NCBI GenBank assembly: GCA_018901315.1
Contig: JAHIFA010000113.1
Coordinates: 1-6,124, forward strand
Source: Nanobdellota archaeon
GTDB lineage: Archaea; Nanobdellota; Nanobdellia; Woesearchaeales; CG1-02-33-12
Length of the DNA: 6,124 nucleotides
Direction of reading: 5' to 3'
Of the stretch, positions 168 through 6,124 are shown piece by piece (positions within the stretch are counted from its first letter, which is position 1; every line of letters starts with the position of its first letter). The notes beneath the pieces were generated by a model. That model made no database searches and was not told the DNA's origin. It saw only the letters and a program-made list of their open reading frames with translations. The position numbers were made by a program, and so were the translations under genes.

Positions 168-521
168 ATGAAAACAAAAAAAGAGGCGATACTGCTTGTT
201 TTATTATGTACCTTCCTTACTGCAGCAGGCCAGATATTTCTTAAGATTGGCTCAGGGAACTTAAGTTTCAGTATTTTAAATCTATTAGGCAATTTACCAT
301 TGATAACTGGGTTTGTCCTTTATTTCCTGGGTGCTGTAATTTTAGTTATTGCATTAAAGCATGGAGAGCTTTCTGTGCTTTACCCTATTATTGCAACATC
401 ATTTGTCTGGGTAAGCTTTTTATCCATAATATTTCTTAATGAAATTATGAATTCATGGAAATGGGCAGGCGTTATAACAATAATAATTGGTATTAGCCTA
501 ATAGGAAGGGGTGCAGGCTGA
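168..521 (+). CDS. Four-TM EamA/SMR-like protein, ArnE-like flippase subunit
   Basis: A 117-aa integral membrane protein with four predicted helices at about residues 7-25, 44-63, 68-90 and 97-113. The layout resembles ArnE/ArnF, small DMT-superfamily proteins that pair to flip an undecaprenyl-phosphate-linked aminosugar. Shared points are an AGQ-x-x-x-K stretch after helix 1, a xxxYPxxxxxFVWV segment in helix 3 (residues 70-83), a conserved LNE before the last loop, and a KWAGVxxIIxGIxLIG helix 4. The acidic residue in helix 1 typical of SMR drug exporters is absent, which argues against a cation-drug antiporter. It begins a three-gene unit and its stop is one base before the next ATG. It is likely half of a heterodimer with that paralogue. 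The family is fairly secure; the lipid-sugar substrate is inference. Confidence 0.72.
   Translation: MKTKKEAILLVLLCTFLTAAGQIFLKIGSGNLSFSILNLLGNLPLITGFVLYFLGAVILVIALKHGELSVLYPIIATSFVWVSFLSIIFLNEIMNSWKWAGVITIIIGISLIGRGAG
504..513 (+). promoter_or_regulatory. Ribosome binding site deciding the start of the second flippase subunit
   Basis: The purine-rich GGAAGGGGTG lies 9 bases before ATG 523 and overlaps the 3' end of the preceding gene. A GTG at 511 is in frame but sits inside this motif, so ATG 523 is the better start. Confidence 0.45.
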
Positions 522-522
522 A

Positions 523-873
523 ATGGCAACACAACTATGGGCAATAACAACTGTTTTGTTTGGAACAATTATAGGCAGTTTTGGAGCACTTTATTTTAAG
601 ATAGGCTCTGAAACAATTTCAATAGATGTTAAAAAACTAATAAAAAATCATAAGCTGATTTTAGGGTTTGTATTTTATGGCATTTCATCTATATTTTTCA
701 TAATAGCATTAACTGGTGGAGAGCTTTCTGTGCTTTACCCTTTATGCGCAGCCTCTTATATATGGGTCTGCCTGTTGTCAATGAAATTCCTGAACGAAAA
801 AATGAACAAATTAAAATGGCTTGGCATAATAACAATAATAATAGGAATAACATTTATTGGGTTTGGTAGGTAA
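523..873 (+). CDS. Four-TM EamA/SMR-like protein, ArnF-like flippase partner
   Basis: A 116-aa membrane protein with four predicted helices, alignable almost column for column with the preceding gene. FKIGS matches LKIGS near residue 25, GELSVLYP occupies residues 67-74 in both, and the LNEKMN and KWLGIITIIIGI segments also correspond. The pair is therefore a tandem duplication that most likely forms an antiparallel or asymmetric heterodimer, as in ArnE/ArnF and other two-gene SMR-like systems. Such pairs translocate small polar or lipid-linked substrates; a polyprenyl-phosphate sugar is the preferred guess from similarity to ArnE/F, not proven. ATG 523 is one base after the upstream stop, and its own TAA is one base before pyrH, implying co-translation. 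The GTG at 511 would add four residues and is considered unlikely. Confidence 0.7.
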   Translation: MATQLWAITTVLFGTIIGSFGALYFKIGSETISIDVKKLIKNHKLILGFVFYGISSIFFIIALTGGELSVLYPLCAASYIWVCLLSMKFLNEKMNKLKWLGIITIIIGITFIGFGR

Positions 874-1552: not shown

Positions 1553-2461
1553 TTAGAATAATCTTGTTTTATTTTTTTCCAGGTCAAGAAGCCTTTGCCA
1601 CTGGTCATCTGTATGAGCCTGCACATCTTTTATTTCTTCTTCTGTCATATGCTTAAACCTGCCCTGGGTCTTAAGGTAATCTTTGACAGGAATCTTGTTT
1701 GCAGGCTTTTTTGAGATTGTTAATATTCCTTTTTCAATCTCGTAAAGAGGGACTATATTTGACTGAAAAGCGAGTTTTCCAATTTCTATTGTCGCATTAT
1801 TAAGAAACTTCCAGCCTGTTGGGCATGGAACATAAACCTCTATGTAAGCAGGCCCGTTAAATGCAAGGCCTTTTTTAACCTTATTAATAAAATCCAAGGG
1901 AAATGCTATGTTAGCTGTCGCAACATAAGCGCCGTGAGCTGCCATTATAAATGACATTGGCTTCTTGAATTCTGTTTTTCCATGTATTAATTTTCCTGCC
2001 GGGCTTGTTGTTGTTGAGGCATATTTTGGTGTTGCTCCTGAGCGCTGTATGCCTGTGTTCATGTAAGCTGCGTTATCAAAGCAGATATAGCAAAAGTTTT
2101 GGCCTCTCTCAACTGCTCCTGACAATGCCTGAAAGCCAATATCAAATGTTCCTCCATCACCACCAAACACTAAAAGATTTGTGTCTTTTCTCTTGCCTAA
2201 TGTTTTTAAAGCCCTGTCAATGCCAGAGGCAATTGCTGCTGCATTTTCAAAGGCGCCGTGTATCCATGGAATTTTCCATGATGTTTCCGGGTAGGGTGTG
2301 CTGAATACTTCCAAGCAGCTTGTTGCATTGACAACTATTGTGTTTTTGCCAGCTGCTTTTAGTGCATGCCTTGCTGCTAAAGCAACTCCGCATCCTGCGC
2401 AGGCCCTGTGGCCTGATGCAAAAAGTTCCTCTGTTGAGATTCCTGCAATTGTTTTTTCCAT
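1553..2461 (-). CDS. porB: Pyruvate:ferredoxin oxidoreductase beta subunit (TPP-binding)
   Basis: A 302-aa subunit carrying thiamine pyrophosphate and the proximal [4Fe-4S] cluster of POR, which converts pyruvate plus CoA to acetyl-CoA, CO2 and reduced ferredoxin. Cluster ligands are Cys21 and Cys24 (RACAGCG), Cys49 (NATSCLEVFSTPYP) and Cys213 (VPCPTGW). The TPP/Mg motif is GGDGGTFDIG around residues 100-109, followed by FDNAAYMNTG with Asn130 and Asn135. The CPTGW and PYPETSW stretches support POR rather than the other 2-oxoacid ferredoxin oxidoreductases, though substrate assignment from sequence alone has limits. ATG 2461 is preferred; an in-frame TTG at 2470 has no clear ribosome site and would overlap the upstream gene. 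The upstream zinc-ribbon gene's stop is one base away, suggesting coupled translation. It is the last gene of the operon. Confidence 0.93.
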   Translation of the reverse strand: MEKTIAGISTEELFASGHRACAGCGVALAARHALKAAGKNTIVVNATSCLEVFSTPYPETSWKIPWIHGAFENAAAIASGIDRALKTLGKRKDTNLLVFGGDGGTFDIGFQALSGAVERGQNFCYICFDNAAYMNTGIQRSGATPKYASTTTSPAGKLIHGKTEFKKPMSFIMAAHGAYVATANIAFPLDFINKVKKGLAFNGPAYIEVYVPCPTGWKFLNNATIEIGKLAFQSNIVPLYEIEKGILTISKKPANKIPVKDYLKTQGRFKHMTEEEIKDVQAHTDDQWQRLLDLEKNKTRLF

Positions 2462-2462
2462 T

Positions 2463-2708
2463 TTATTCAATCTTTTTTTCCAAGTTTTCTTTTATTTTAA
2501 AGCCATTTCCATCCCAATAGTCATGGCCAGAGCCGTGAAAGTCAACCTTAGTCCTGTTCTTTGTTTTACATCCAGGGCATATAACTGTCTTGTAATGATG
2601 CTCTGATTCAAACTCTGAATTCCATGTTTTTCCTTTAAGCTTGTCTCCGCAATACAAACATGTTTTTTTTGTATCTATTTCTTTTATTAAATGATGTGCT
2701 GCTGTCAT
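2463..2708 (-). CDS. Small zinc-ribbon protein encoded between porA and porB
   Basis: An 81-aa soluble protein that I do not recognise. Two CxxC pairs (Cys17/Cys20 in CLYCG and Cys44/Cys47 in CPGC) make a zinc-ribbon-like core with an insert rich in Glu and His (SEFESEHHY, 31-39). A segment with HGSGHDYWDG (58-67) follows, then a lysine/glutamate-rich tail. The start is secure: AGGAGGAT lies 4 bases upstream of ATG 2708. It begins 24 bases after the porA stop and ends one base before the porB ATG, so it is part of the operon. A role in POR assembly, iron-sulfur loading or regulation is possible from position only; it is not a standard POR subunit. Extra His residues could mean metal binding beyond one zinc site. 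Translation is likely; function is unknown. Confidence 0.8.
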   Translation of the reverse strand: MTAAHHLIKEIDTKKTCLYCGDKLKGKTWNSEFESEHHYKTVICPGCKTKNRTKVDFHGSGHDYWDGNGFKIKENLEKKIE

Positions 2709-2732: not shown

Positions 2733-3908
2733 CTAGAGCAACCACTCAATGTCACTGCTGTTCTCTATTTTGTTAAAAGCTGTTTTAATATGGCTAAGGG
2801 TAATGTCCCTGCCGCCAAGGCCAGCAATAAAGCCTTTTATTATTGGTTTTTTCTTTTGATTGTAAAATGCCGACCTTAATTCAGTGTATAATGCGCCTTC
2901 ATTTCCTAATGATATATTGCGGTCAATAACTGCAATTCCTTTTAGGTTTTTGCAGCAGTTTATTATTTTTTGTTTTGGGAAAGGCCTGAATGATTTTATC
3001 TTTATTAATCCAACTTTTCTGCCCTGTTTTCTCAGCTCATCAACAACAACTCTTGTTGTGCCGCATACAGTGCCCATTGCTGCAACAGCATAGTCTGCAT
3101 CATCAATTTTATAAATCTCTATTAAGCCATCTCCATAAGACCTGCTGAAAGATTTTTTAAAATCATTATTAGTATTTTTGATTACCTCAATTGAGTTCAG
3201 CATTGCCTCATGCGTTTCTTTTCTGAACTCCATGTAAGTGTTTGGGAATCCTATTGGTCCCATTGTGATTGGTTTTTTTGTATCTAATTTGAATAAAGGA
3301 TTATATTTGGGAAGGAATTTATCAACCTCCTTTTTCTCAGGAATATCAACAGGTTCATATACATGGCTTAAGGTAAAACCATCCAAGCAGACCATTACCG
3401 GCAATAAAATTTTTCTGTTTTCTGCTATTTTATATGCCTGGATTACTGTGTCAAGCGCTTCCTGCGCTGATTCAACATAAAGCTGTATCCATCCAGAATC
3501 GCGTTCTGATATTGAATCCTGATGGTCATTCCAGATGTTTATTGGAGCACTTAATGCACGGTTCGCAACAGCCATTACAACAGGAAGCCTCATTCCTGAA
3601 ACTACAAAAAGAATTTCATGCATTAATGCCAGGCCCTGCGAAGCTGTTGCTGTAAATGTCCTTACACCCATTGCTTCTGCACCTAAGGCTGCTGAGATTG
3701 CACTATGCTCTGACTCTGCATGAATCATCTCTGATTTAAGCAGGCCATCATTTATGTAATCTGCAAGGCGCTCTACTATGTGCGTATCCACTGGTTAAGT
3801 ATTTACTTAAACCAACTGTGGTGTTATAGGGTACATAGGAATTACCCCTGGCTCACATAGCTTAACACCTAAAGCAACGGCGGTACTTGCCTCAATTACT
3901 TTTTTCAT
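2733..3908 (-). CDS. porA: Pyruvate:ferredoxin oxidoreductase alpha subunit, interrupted by a 30-nt BHB intron
   Basis: The joined product is 381 aa: codons 3908-3816 (31 aa, MKKVIEAS to YPITPQ) joined to 3785-2733 (350 aa, from THIVERL). PorA carries the pyruvate-binding and core POR domains. Visible features are the YPITPQT motif (26-32), AESEHSA with the conserved Glu55 expected to activate TPP, TFTATASQGLALMHE (74-88), NRALSAPINIW (107-117), SERDSGW near 124-130, a C-terminal domain from about 245 with SFRPFP, and GFIAGLGGRD near the end. Read straight through, the gene stops at TAA 3809-3807 after 33 codons, and a second TAA lies at 3797-3795. Removing the 30 nt keeps frame and rebuilds the conserved motif exactly. 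The rest shows no decay. ATG 3908 is the first possible start after an in-frame TGA at 3926-3924. A private TATA box and ribosome site precede it. Confidence 0.9.
3786..3815 (-). other. Candidate 30-nt bulge-helix-bulge (archaeal tRNA-type) intron in porA mRNA
   Basis: Reading the minus strand, exon CCAC (3821-3818) pairs with intron GUGG (3791-3788) as the 4-bp central helix. The 5' bulge is AGU (3817-3815) and the 3' bulge is AUA (3787-3785). The internal stem pairs UGGUU (3814-3810) with AACCA (3796-3792), then after one bulged U, AAGU (3808-3805) with ACUU (3800-3797), closed by a 4-nt loop. Archaeal splicing endonuclease cuts after the second nucleotide of each bulge, giving CAG joined to ACG (Gln-Thr) and excising exactly 30 nt. 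The outer helix is weak: CUAU 3829-3826 can pair with AUAG 3779-3776 across an internal loop, so this is a relaxed BHB. Two in-frame TAA codons lie inside. Excision is inferred, not shown. Confidence 0.82.
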
Positions 3909-3922
3909 TTTTGACTTTTTTA

Positions 3923-3930
3923 CTCACCTC
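3923..3930 (-). promoter_or_regulatory. Ribosome binding site of porA
   Basis: GAGGTGAG on the minus strand matches the archaeal SD and lies 14 bases upstream of ATG 3908. That spacing is longer than usual, but no other in-frame start exists between the in-frame TGA at 3926-3924 and ATG 3908. Confidence 0.5.
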
Positions 3931-3957
3931 AATTTTTAACTAGTTTAATCAAGATTG

Positions 3958-3965
3958 TATTTATA
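3958..3965 (-). promoter_or_regulatory. Possible internal TATA box driving porA onward
   Basis: TATAAATA on the minus strand begins just after the porD stop. A start about 26 bases downstream (near 3935) would give a short leader containing the GAGGTGAG site. It suggests porA, the zinc gene and porB can be transcribed separately from porGD. Confidence 0.5.
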
Positions 3966-3967
3966 TT

Positions 3968-4228
3968 TTACTTTTCCTCTTTCACCATTTTTATTGCCTT
4001 AACAGGACATTCATTTGCGCAGATTCCACAGCCCTTACAATAATCATAGTTTACCTCAAAGTTTTCATTAATTGCATTATCAGGGCAGAACTGCCAGCAG
4101 GTTCCGCATTTTATGCATTTTTTATGATCTATAATCGGCCTGAAAGAGCGCCAGCCACCTGTCTTGTTTTTTATTGTCGAGCCCGGCTCATCTATTACTG
4201 CTCCCACACTAATTTTTGGTTTTGTCAT
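3968..4228 (-). CDS. porD: Pyruvate:ferredoxin oxidoreductase delta subunit (2x[4Fe-4S])
   Basis: An 86-aa ferredoxin-like subunit that relays electrons from the TPP-proximal cluster in PorB to external ferredoxin. Two complete CxxCxxCxxxCP motifs are visible: Cys38, 41, 44, 48 and Cys64, 67, 70, 74, each ligating one [4Fe-4S] cluster. The N-terminal stretch with [10 protein letters not shown] and [12 protein letters not shown] is the typical PorD lead-in and separates it from free ferredoxins. Its ATG overlaps the porG TGA by four bases (ATGA), a translational-coupling arrangement, and no separate SD is seen. A 59-base gap with a TATA box and ribosome site separates it from porA. Confidence 0.93.
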
Positions 4229-4773
4229 TTTGTCTGATTATAAACAGCTGTTATTACCTCTTTGTTAAGCTCAGCTATTTTCTTTCCTTTTGTTTCTAAA
4301 AATGTTTCATCAATTGCTTTTGTTAATGATTTTAATGAGATTTCTTTTGTTATTTTTGAGAATGCGCCAAGCATTGGCGTGTTTACAATAGGCTTTCCAA
4401 AAATCTTCAATGCAATTGAGGTTGCATCAACAGTATGAGTATTAAAATTTCCTTTTATTTTTAAATCGGCAGTCTTTTTGTTTGTATTAATTATTAATGT
4501 GCCTTTTTCCTTTAAGCCAGATGTTACATCAACTGTTTCAAGCAAAGAGGCATCTAAAACAATAACAATATCTGGATTATATACCTGGCTCCTTATGTTT
4601 ATTTTTTCATCAGAAATCCTTGCAAATGCCTGGACAGGTGCTCCTGATCTTTCAACACCAAACATTGGGAATGTCTGGCTCTGCTTGTTGTCATAAAAAG
4701 CTGCTATTGCCATTATCTGGCCTGTTGTAACAGCTCCCTGGCCACCCCTTCCGTGAATTCTTATTTCTATCAT
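4225..4773 (-). CDS. porG: Pyruvate:ferredoxin oxidoreductase gamma subunit
   Basis: A 182-aa gamma subunit of POR, needed for the assembled alpha-beta-gamma-delta enzyme and corresponding to the gamma domain of fused bacterial PFORs. The N-terminal [17 protein letters not shown] (4-20), the [20 protein letters not shown] segment (35-54) and [11 protein letters not shown] (68-78) are family hallmarks. The C-terminal part has [12 protein letters not shown] (131-142), typical of the conserved NxxMLGA motif. Length is normal. It opens the operon; ATG 4773 follows GAGG with no spacer, and a TATA box about 34 bases upstream predicts a very short leader, so initiation may be close to leaderless. 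PorD follows by a 4-base overlap. The first-gene position and four separate subunits match archaeal-type POR. Confidence 0.94.
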
Positions 4774-5049: not shown

Positions 5050-5123
5050 GCCTCGGTAGCTTAGCTAGCCAGAGCAGCAGACTCGTAATCTGCAGGTCGG
5101 GGGTGCAAATCCCTCTCGAGGCT
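5050..5123 (+). tRNA. tRNA-Thr, anticodon CGU
   Basis: A full cloverleaf. The acceptor is GCCTCGG/TCGAGGC (5050-5056/5116-5122, one G-U at the base) and the D-stem is GCTT/GAGC. The anticodon stem GCAGA/TCTGC carries loop CTCGTAA (5082-5088), giving CGU at 5084-5086, which reads ACG. A 5-nt variable loop AGGTC follows, then T-stem GGGGG/CCCTC. The discriminator at 5123 is T, as in archaeal tRNA-Thr; CCA is not encoded and no intron is present. Odd points are position 55 being G (T-loop TGCAAAT) and position 18 apparently A (D-loop AGCTAGCCA). No independent promoter is obvious, so it likely shares the transcript of the gene ten bases upstream. TTTT at 5123-5126 may help termination. Confidence 0.95.
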
Positions 5124-5163: not shown

Positions 5164-6124
5164 CTATTTAAAGAAATAAACCAATAAAAAAGTTATTGCT
5201 ACTAAGCTAATTAAAATTATACCTTTATTATTTTTCATATCAAGACCATCATAAGATATTCTTCCTGTGATTTTATTCAAATCCCTGCTATTTTTATCAG
5301 CTTCTCTATCAACTGAGGAATTTAATATGATCCCTGATAAAACCTCTTGTTGCACAAAACTAGTTTTATCTTCTTCATCTTTTATAGTTGTCTCCTCTTC
5401 TATTAGTGATTCTTTTTTCTTTTTAGTTTCAATTTTTTTTGGTGGTATGTAATTACATGATTGTGTTTCTGTTGGCTTTCCAGCTGTTGTTCTGCAATTA
5501 TTTTTATCAGTACATGTTCTTGTTTGTGTTCCTTCTTTTGAGCATTTTGACCATTTTGTGCATTGCCAGTCTGGAATACATCTAAGGCTACTGCCTCCAC
5601 CACCACCTCCAGAAGAGCTTGCAACATGTTTTTCTGGGGTTTTTGAAATATTGCATATTGAATTAGTAATGTTCTGTGATAAAGGTTCAGTGCAGTACTC
5701 ATATTTAGATGTTTCATTTCTGATTTGTTGCATATATCCATCAGAAACACATTCATCATCTTCCCAGTCTGTGTAATCGCATGAGCATGTTGAGTCTTGT
5801 TCTGTCTCATTGTATTCTGTTCCGCAGTAATCATAGTTCCATGTGTATGTTACTTCTGCAAAACCATCATCAATGCAGATTCTTGATGCTTCATAGGATT
5901 CACAATCACATATTGGATCAAGGATTTCCTGTTCAAGAGAATCTGTGCAATAATCATATCCAGAAGTTTCAGTTATTATCTGCCTCATTGTACCATTTGA
6001 TACACATTTCACATTTGTCCAGTCTGTGTATTGACATAAGCAGTTTTGATCCTCTACTATATCTGTGTATTGTTCTCCACAGAATTCATAGTTCCAATCA
6101 TAAGTCACATTAGCAAATCCATCT
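5164..6124 (-). CDS. Cys-rich surface protein with tandem repeats, TSP1-like domain and C-terminal membrane anchor (5' end beyond window)
   Basis: The last 319 residues of a larger protein; the frame stays open to the window edge, so a GTG at 6108 is not a true start. Counting from the first full codon (6123), residues 1-157 hold tandem Cys-rich repeats, with DGFAxVTYxWNYxxCG at 1-16 and again at 86-101. A low-complexity Ser/Gly linker (169-179) follows. A thrombospondin type-1-like module lies at 182-223, with CxPDWQCTKWSKC and TQTRTC and six more or less canonical Cys. Next are a Lys/Glu-rich stalk and a hydrophobic C-terminal helix (301-318) ending in FFK. The layout suggests an extracellular, disulfide-bonded adhesion or envelope protein anchored by its tail, a type frequent in DPANN archaea. 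The signal peptide would be off-window. It is convergent with the tRNA; 5124-5163 holds no clear gene. Confidence 0.82.
   Translation of the reverse strand, partial: DGFANVTYDWNYEFCGEQYTDIVEDQNCLCQYTDWTNVKCVSNGTMRQIITETSGYDYCTDSLEQEILDPICDCESYEASRICIDDGFAEVTYTWNYDYCGTEYNETEQDSTCSCDYTDWEDDECVSDGYMQQIRNETSKYEYCTEPLSQNITNSICNISKTPEKHVASSSGGGGGGSSLRCIPDWQCTKWSKCSKEGTQTRTCTDKNNCRTTAGKPTETQSCNYIPPKKIETKKKKESLIEEETTIKDEEDKTSFVQQEVLSGIILNSSVDREADKNSRDLNKITGRISYDGLDMKNNKGIILISLVAITFLLVYFFK
5653..6042 (-). repeat. Three ~43-residue Cys repeats within the surface protein
   Basis: CxC-type boundaries fall at visible residues 28, 72, 113 and 157, spacing 44, 41 and 44. Each unit reads CxCxxYxxxxxxxC, then a Gly, then a hydroxyl-rich strand ending YxYC (or FC in the preceding partial unit). 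Alternate units are most alike (TDW type versus EAS/DDGFA type), giving a higher-order period of 85 residues. Confidence 0.75.

What the first reader, a model, noticed from the sequence alone, without database searches (positions are those of the whole stretch)
3776..3829. Minimal 30-nt BHB intron inside a metabolic protein-coding gene (porA)
Seen: the YPITPQ codons end at 3816, family sequence resumes in the same frame at 3785 (THIVERL), and the 30 nt between contain two in-frame TAA codons. The bases form a 4-bp central helix (CCAC/GUGG), two 3-nt bulges (AGU, AUA) and an internal hairpin. Known: archaeal tRNA-splicing endonuclease cuts BHB motifs after bulge nucleotide 2. Applying that rule excises exactly the 30 nt that protein homology demands; two independent lines converge on the same bases. 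Protein-gene BHB introns are rare in archaea (cbf5 is the known textbook case); one in POR would be new to my knowledge. The outer helix is weak, so a broad-specificity endonuclease would be needed.
Basis: partly seen in the sequence, partly recalled or inferred. Interest (0 to 1): 0.93.

Follow-up and report, generated by a model that had tools for sequence, protein, structure and literature searches.

The report
Tiny mobile intron in archaeal porA
A 30-base insert splits the pyruvate-oxidising gene porA of a small uncultured archaeon; it is predicted to be spliced out of the RNA, and in related archaea such inserts often sit beside a predicted DNA-cutting gene that likely lets the tiny intron spread between species.

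Summary
Observation confirmed. porA (minus strand) is split by 30 nt at window 3786-3815 with two in-frame TAA codons; excision by the bulge-helix-bulge (BHB) rule restores YPITPQ|THIVERL. Seventeen genomes carry an insert at this codon boundary (16 of 27-35 nt, one of 13 nt), several not multiples of three. All 17 fit the central helix, with compensatory versions (CCAC/GUGG, CCUC/GAGG, CCGC/GCGG); many relatives, one in the same genus, have none. New here: a LAGLIDADG homing-endonuclease ORF lies beside porA in 11 of these 17 loci and in 0 of 25 insert-free loci on the tree; in ten it is upstream and antisense, in eight of these nested between porD and porA. Searches starting from the endonuclease led to two further intron-bearing porA genes in a second group (Aenigmatarchaeota by title). 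One genus member has a mosaic porA, as intron transfer would leave. Best reading: a minimal BHB intron likely spread by a separate neighbouring endonuclease; the window keeps the intron without it. Splicing and DNA cleavage are inferred, not assayed; the outer helix is weak and only one alpha-type splicing-endonuclease gene was found.

The parts
3816..3908 (-). porA exon 1 (31 codons, MKKVIEAS...YPITPQ)
   Evidence: alignment to intronless relatives
3786..3815 (-). 30-nt BHB intron (two in-frame TAA)
   Evidence: covariation
3818..3821 (-). central helix, 5' strand CCAC (exon 1)
   Evidence: pairs with 3788-3791; pair 3 is A-U, U-A or G-C in relatives
3815..3817 (-). 5' bulge AGU, predicted cut between 3816 and 3815
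3792..3814 (-). inner hairpin UGGUU...AACCA
3788..3791 (-). central helix, 3' strand GUGG (intron)
3785..3787 (-). 3' bulge AUA, predicted cut between 3786 and 3785
2733..3785 (-). porA exon 2 (350 codons plus stop; POR_N, PFOR_II)
   Evidence: dN/dS 0.08-0.13 in four comparisons within the genus
3909..3967 (-). porD-porA gap, the place where the endonuclease gene sits in eight relatives; here empty, possibly a scar of its loss (inference, compared by eye)
3968..4228 (-). porD (ferredoxin subunit)
4225..4773 (-). porG (gamma subunit, PF01558)
1553..2470 (-). porB (beta subunit, PF02775)

Best explanation
The 30 nt form a minimal bulge-helix-bulge intron in porA that is predicted to be cut out by the tRNA-splicing endonuclease, is likely rejoined by RtcB, and likely spreads between species through a separate LAGLIDADG homing endonuclease encoded beside porA in relatives. 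Shown: same-site inserts in 17 genomes with conserved, co-varying BHB structure and variable length; purifying selection on the interrupted porA; endonuclease, archease and RtcB genes in the own genome; an endonuclease ORF beside porA in 11 of 17 insert-bearing loci and none of 25 insert-free loci; a patchy distribution; and a mosaic porA in one genus member. Inferred: that splicing happens; that the endonuclease cuts intronless porA at or near the conserved PITPQT codons; that repair from an intron-bearing donor copies intron, exon edges and, when the tract reaches it, the endonuclease gene. In the window's genus the endonuclease was not found, so its intron would be the leftover stage of such a cycle.
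For: Same site, phase 0, in 17 genomes. Lengths 27, 28, 29, 30, 32, 34, 35 and one of 13, so in many loci the frame resumes only on exact excision. 17 of 17 fit the central helix at the predicted cut (14 printed; G005, G006 and G007 have G000's insert), as CCAC/GUGG, CCUC/GAGG or CCGC/GCGG. Covariation: 0 of 500 and 0 of 20,000 shuffles. dN/dS of exon 2 is 0.08-0.13; one porA match per genome in the family. Endonuclease ORF: LAGLIDADG_3 above cut-off in 6 of 9 full-length ORFs scanned; structure model pLDDT 88.6 matching I-DmoI, I-Tsp061I and intein endonucleases; acidic motifs GDGE and DEG kept in all seven full-length rows of the alignment; dN/dS 0.14 between two copies. Endonuclease-first searches: close hits (50% identity or more over long stretches) in 5 of 343 genomes and 2 of 34, and all 7 lie beside an intron-bearing porA. 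Independent pairs on the tree: 6 with, 0 against, 3 undecided, p 0.031. 13 changes of state on the best tree, 9 forced by well supported branches, no better clustered than shuffled labels. Mosaic in G005: in porA nt 0-80 it sides with intronless G002 at 9 of 11 informative sites, in nt 80-360 around and after the intron with G000 at 15 of 18 (counted on the row printed); mismatches to G000 are 9 of 280 there against 97 of 830 beyond, p 9.5e-6.
Against: No transcript was seen, so splicing is inferred. The outer helix does not form, which makes this a relaxed motif; a review says that only (alpha-beta)2 and epsilon2 enzymes remove relaxed motifs efficiently (PMC6379350, passages), yet one PF01974 match of alpha-type length was found in 16 of 19 genomes (partial in G006) and none in G002, G007 and G159. 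The own genome shows no copy of the endonuclease gene, nor do G001, G005, G129, G244 and G474: 6 of 17 carry the insert without it. Three of nine endonuclease ORFs give no Pfam hit at 1e-3. G540 and G541 were found through the endonuclease, so they enter the 11-of-17 count with bias. The limits of the G005 tract (80-360) were chosen, and the same stretch is also more alike between G000 and intronless G002 (20 of 250 against 116 of 830, p 0.012), so part of the signal is local conservation. Under the strict rule with 3 adjacent inner pairs, 12 of 14 representatives show the placement (G025 is shifted by one pair, G474 has no inner helix) and 6 of 14 allow a further placement. DNA cleavage and target site were not tested.
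Confidence: 0.82

Rival explanations
1. The BHB intron is real and spliced but not mobile: an old porA intron lost many times, with the LAGLIDADG ORF an independent passenger of the por operon.
For: cbf5 introns behave like this (gain in an ancestor, later losses; PMC2738675 passages). Six of 17 insert-bearing genomes show no endonuclease gene. Part of the G005 signal is local conservation.
Against: Endonuclease ORFs were seen beside intron-bearing porA only (11 of 17 against 0 of 25; flanks of the insert-free loci are 1.5-3 kb or less); endonuclease-first close hits all lie at such loci; G005 is a mosaic; the 30-nt insert is identical between two genera whose porA proteins are 78% identical.
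Confidence: 0.12
2. The insert is not spliced; porA is translated from the in-frame GUG at 3791 as an N-terminally shortened protein, with or without the 33-codon leader peptide.
For: A GUG lies six nt before exon 2 in frame in 12 of 14 representatives, and the 352-aa ORF from it is what an ORF listing gives.
Against: This would drop the conserved YPITPQ motif. The GUG follows automatically from the CCAC/GUGG helix and is GAG in G525 and GCG in G540. Exon 1 is conserved: 0-1 non-synonymous against 4-13 synonymous changes in four comparisons.
Confidence: 0.03
3. The ribosome skips the insert by programmed bypassing, as in T4 gene 60.
For: Short structured inserts with stops inside coding genes are known from bypassing (recalled).
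Against: Bypassing needs matching take-off and landing codons (recalled); here they are CAG or CAA against GAT, GAA, GAG or GAC in 14 of 14 representatives. Lengths vary by single bases and the BHB geometry is kept.
Confidence: 0.01
4. Assembly artefact, strain mixture or pseudogene.
For: The own genome is a fragmented draft (160 contigs).
Against: The insert recurs at the same site in MAG records with different titles (L011, L012, L014, L015, L017, L019, L021, L023, L028); porA is under purifying selection; no second copy in the family search.
Confidence: 0.02

Closest known systems
cbf5 pre-mRNA BHB introns of Desulfurococcales and Sulfolobales (PMC2738675, passages seen)
   Same: BHB intron in an archaeal protein-coding gene, 16-44 bp, relaxed motif frequent, removed by the tRNA-splicing endonuclease.
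   Different: Different gene, lineage and site. The cbf5 intron is described as more conserved than rRNA introns and too short to encode an endonuclease; the passages seen mention no neighbouring one. Here an endonuclease gene stands beside the host gene in most loci and the distribution is patchy.
Mobile archaeal rRNA BHB introns with LAGLIDADG genes, including hairpin-only introns of Pyrobaculum 16S rRNA (PMC4496867, passages seen)
   Same: BHB splicing, LAGLIDADG homing; in P. oguniense an endonuclease encoded in one intron co-converts a neighbouring hairpin-only intron 8 nt away.
   Different: There the endonuclease lies inside an rRNA intron; here it is a stand-alone antisense gene outside any intron, and the target is a protein-coding gene.
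Collaborative / trans homing in T4-like phages, mobE and the nrdB intron (PMC2988022, passages seen)
   Same: A free-standing endonuclease gene next to the host gene mobilises an intron that has no working endonuclease.
   Different: Phage, HNH endonuclease, group I intron (recalled); here archaea, LAGLIDADG, 27-35-nt intron predicted to be spliced by proteins.
BHB cuts in the 5' UTR of HVO_1309 of Haloferax (PMC7714728, passages seen)
   Same: An archaeal mRNA processed by the splicing endonuclease.
   Different: Untranslated region, not an insert inside a reading frame; no endonuclease gene mentioned in the passages.
Putative 12-bp introns in SIRV1 rudivirus genes (Peng 2004, known only as cited in PMC2738675)
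   Same: Very short inserts in archaeal protein genes proposed as introns.
   Different: Splicing not shown there; no endonuclease mentioned in the passage.

Membership tests
Archaeal BHB intron | 4-bp central helix between exon 1 and the intron's 3' end | tested here: met
   17 of 17 loci; three compensating versions
Archaeal BHB intron | two 3-nt bulges with cuts after nt 2 that restore the mature sequence | tested here: met
   excision gives ITPQT in 14 of 14 representatives
Archaeal BHB intron | inner helix in the intron | tested here: met
   56 of 60 inner cells pair in 12 distinct introns; not met in the 13-nt insert of G474
Archaeal BHB intron | outer helix (strict hBHBh' form) | tested here: not met
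   at most 2 of the 4 nearest outer positions pair in 11 sequences, never two in a row: relaxed HBh' form only
Archaeal BHB intron | cleaved by the splicing endonuclease and ligated by RtcB | not testable with these tools
   genes present; no RNA data
LAGLIDADG homing endonuclease (ORF beside porA in relatives) | LAGLIDADG domain and fold | tested here: met
   PF14528 in 6 of 9 full-length ORFs scanned, fold match to I-DmoI and others, weak sequence match to PI-PfuI, E 0.00047
LAGLIDADG homing endonuclease (ORF beside porA in relatives) | site-specific cut of the intronless allele | not testable with these tools
   no assay
Homing intron | patchy distribution and co-conversion of flanks | tested here: met
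   13 changes on the best tree; mosaic in G005, one clear case only and partly confounded by local conservation
Group I or II intron | catalytic RNA family match | tested here: not met
   no Rfam match at 3700-3920 up to E 1; 30 nt is too short

The most novel reading that the evidence does not exclude
A two-part mobile intron: a 27-35-nt BHB intron with no coding capacity, spliced by the host's tRNA enzymes, is spread through porA of DPANN archaea in two phyla by a stand-alone antisense LAGLIDADG endonuclease gene beside porA, with copies that have lost the endonuclease (the window) and one that has shrunk to 13 nt. It would be the first mobile BHB intron of an archaeal protein gene that I know of.
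Probability: 0.72. Interest if true: 0.92.

Novelty: new variant of a known kind. Interest (0 to 1): 0.87.

Why it matters
A 2020 paper names cbf5 as the only further BHB intron reported in archaea besides tRNA and rRNA, and itself adds cuts in one 5' UTR (PMC7714728, passages); how such tiny introns arise and spread is open. This case supplies a candidate vehicle, a separate endonuclease gene beside the host gene, and makes the question testable. It also means that porA is likely mis-annotated in these genomes (its first 31 codons lie outside the listed ORF), that a DPANN central-metabolism enzyme would depend on tRNA-splicing enzymes, and that a single alpha-type endonuclease may handle a relaxed motif.

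Tried and rejected
A scan for further BHB-interrupted ORFs in 121 contigs (660,827 bases: 120 of the own genome's 160 contigs, one of them cut at 20 kb, plus the window) gave 144 candidates with the right bulge size and 124, 158 and 136 with wrong sizes: no excess, so no further intron is claimed (one search showed that porA fails the short list only through an ATG at codon 20). Searching for the endonuclease in phage records and in IMG/VR contigs found none. The RNA model R1 hit only porA at E up to 0.1 in 352 and 371 genomes and at E up to 0.01 in 378 (its extra genome G640 shows the coordinates of L028); in these runs only 14-15 candidates per genome were scored, so weak introns elsewhere could be missed. 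In one search, 99 of 343 genomes had some match to the endonuclease; beyond the 5 close ones these are distant LAGLIDADG ORFs, of which I looked at the neighbours of three only (L140, L141 and, L174): the adjoining reading frames look intact and no intron was found. Alignment A3 had four rows with shifted or short ends and was not used. ARAGORN reported introns in 5 of 14 tRNA genes on these contigs, but none of the five has a clean central helix at ARAGORN's stated junction, so tRNA introns are not used as evidence. Bypassing, re-initiation, pseudogene and group I/II intron were considered and rejected for the reasons given under rivals.

Full report
What is there. The window (G000:C153, a fragmented draft of 871 kb) carries a por operon on the minus strand: porG 4773-4225, porD 4228-3968, porA 3908-2733, a small ORF 2708-2463 and porB 2470-1553. 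The nearest named relatives of porA are mostly MAGs titled Woesearchaeota. porA is open from 3908 to YPITPQ (3816), then come 30 nt with two in-frame TAA codons, then THIVERL from 3785 to the stop. Removing 3786-3815 by the BHB cut rule joins the two parts exactly. A single fold is not striking (z -0.9), so the case rests on comparison.

Relatives. A porA search in the family hit 9 of 9 genomes, one match each, two of them (G003, G004) fragments without the site; a scan of named genomes kept the best 80 of 203 loci. A script that looked for YPITPQ and the resuming frame in the fetched loci showed an insert at that point or none. A covariance model built from 11 rows was then searched in 352, 371 and 378 genomes (the samples overlap) and added G405, G513 and the 13-nt case G474. 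A search that started from the endonuclease added G541 and G540. In all, 17 genomes carry an insert: G000, G001, G005, G006, G007, G025, G055, G129, G159, G180, G244, G405, G513, G525, G540, G541 and G474. Sixteen have 27-35 nt; G474 has 13 nt and no inner helix. Several lengths (28, 29, 32, 34, 35, 13) shift the frame, so the downstream ORF is reached only if exactly these bases go.

Structure. 17 of 17 fit the central helix at the predicted cut: CCAC/GUGG in 15, CCUC/GAGG in G525 and CCGC/GCGG in G540. In 12 distinct introns 104 of 108 cells of central and inner helix pair, against 77.9 +/- 4.4 when whole 3' sides are exchanged, 0 of 20,000 reaching it; on the 11-row alignment 20 cells have two-sided changes, 0 of 500 shuffles. 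Under a stricter rule with three inner pairs next to the bulges, 12 of 14 representatives show the expected placement, G025 and G474 do not, and 6 of 14 allow one or more others. The proline codon in front, whose third base lies in the helix, is CCA in 15 of 17 insert-bearing loci and in 5 of 80 insert-free ones (the script sorted two insert-free loci, L109 and L113, under 'intron?', and I moved them by eye). The outer helix fails: at most 2 of the 4 nearest positions pair in 11 sequences, never two in a row. The motif is therefore of the relaxed HBh' kind.

Machinery. The own genome has one splicing-endonuclease match (195 aa, both Pfam domains; nearest solved chains are the N. equitans chain 3iey_A and 1a79_A, which I take from memory to be M. 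jannaschii). An archease gene lies directly before rtcB, which runs off contig C12 and resumes at the end of C117. One PF01974 match was found in 16 of 19 genomes tested (partial in G006), none in G002, G007 and G159. A review holds that only (alpha-beta)2 and epsilon2 enzymes remove relaxed motifs efficiently (PMC6379350, passages); the single alpha-type gene is thus the main biochemical puzzle.

The neighbour. In G405 and G513 an ORF upstream of porA, in antisense, matched LAGLIDADG_3 above the curated cut-off, and the two are 56% identical. A whole-genome search of 33 genomes found this family in 8, all insert-bearing and in each case beside porA. The other six insert-bearing genomes of that list (G000, G001, G005, G129, G244, G474) gave no match, nor did the 17 insert-free ones nor G003 and G004, whose state is unknown. 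The ORF is nested between porD and porA in G006, G007, G159, G180, G405 and, pieced over two contig ends, G055; in G025 and G513 no porD was seen in the stretch fetched. G541 and G540 show the same nesting, which makes eight. G525 has a different LAGLIDADG-like ORF (435 aa, no Pfam hit at 1e-3, 40% identity over 145 residues) between porA and porB. Endonuclease-first searches gave close hits in G006, G405, G025, G180 and G055 of 343 genomes (94 further genomes had distant matches only) and in G541 and G540 of 34 (one distant match besides): 7 of 7 lie beside an intron-bearing porA. The predicted fold (pLDDT 88.6) matches intein endonucleases, I-Tsp061I and I-DmoI. The acidic motifs GDGE and DEG are kept in the seven full-length rows aligned; G541 and G540 read GDGS and DEG. 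dN/dS between the G006 and G007 copies is 0.14. Between the ORF and porA the loci of the window's phylum share an AT-rich, nearly palindromic ATATTTAAATAT-like block (by eye), which I read as a two-way promoter (inference).

Mobility. On a 42-row tree of exon 2 (one partial row, L027, left out) the insert needs 13 changes, 9 forced by starred branches, no fewer than shuffled labels. Endonuclease and insert go together in 6 independent pairs, against 0, with 3 undecided (p 0.031); the plain table is 11 of 17 against 0 of 25 (Fisher 2.9e-6, not corrected for kinship; the insert-free loci were checked in the flanks held, at most 3 kb for most). The same 30 nt are shared letter for letter by two genera whose porA proteins are 78% identical. 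In G005 the first 80 nt of porA side with intronless G002 at 9 of 11 informative sites, whereas nt 80-360, around and after the intron, side with G000 at 15 of 18; mismatches to G000 are 9 of 280 there and 97 of 830 further on, p 9.5e-6. The limits were set, and this stretch is also somewhat more alike between G000 and G002 (p 0.012), so the test is not clean; the switch of sides is the better evidence. It is what copying an intron with its flanks into an intronless allele would leave.

Is porA alive? Exon 2 is open in every insert-bearing locus used, dN/dS 0.08-0.13 in the genus, one porA match per genome in the family search. So the gene is under selection although its frame is broken.

Literature. 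Searches of the PMC library listed no paper that I recognised as reporting a BHB intron in porA or a BHB intron paired with a free-standing endonuclease; I judged by titles, abstract beginnings and, for nine papers, passages. Subscription papers and preprints are not held, so this is not proof of absence. A 2020 paper states that cbf5 is the only additional BHB intron reported in archaea (PMC7714728); an older one says that introns in other protein genes had been predicted (PMC2738675).

Verdict. The intron is as near certain as sequence can make it. Its mobility by the neighbouring endonuclease is the best reading of the association, the patchiness and the mosaic, but rests on inference for cleavage. 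The window's own copy is an intron without its endonuclease.

Noticed in passing
L134/L190 (G474), porA junction: A 13-nt frame-shifting insert keeps the central helix and both bulges but has no inner hairpin; a shrunken intron or a decayed one.
   Followed up: partly
L174 1285-2412 (-), G405: Another LAGLIDADG ORF (PF14528 plus an ArsR-type HTH) directly upstream of a topoisomerase-like ORF (by eye) on the por contig.
   Followed up: partly
L140 1474-2649 (-) and L141 1432-2622 (-): Related LAGLIDADG ORFs overlapping the start of the same kind of downstream gene in two genomes; no interruption of that gene seen.
   Followed up: no
HEG-bearing loci L179-L186, upstream of porA: A shared ATATTTAAATAT-like block between the divergent endonuclease ORF and porA, possibly a two-way promoter.
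   Followed up: no
G002 (whole genome): The intronless genus member gave no PF01974 match although listed as 92% complete; a missing contig or a real loss.
   Followed up: no
window 2463-2708 (-): 81-aa Cys-rich ORF between porA and porB, no Pfam match; zinc-ribbon-like by eye.
   Followed up: no
window 5164-6123 (-): Repetitive Cys-rich ORF with a C-terminal hydrophobic end, cut by the window edge, no Pfam match; surface protein by look.
   Followed up: no
window 168-873 (+): Two tandem half-size EamA-like membrane ORFs, followed by an amino-acid-kinase family gene at 857-1552.
   Followed up: no
window 5050-5123 (+): tRNA-Thr (CGT) without intron.
   Followed up: yes
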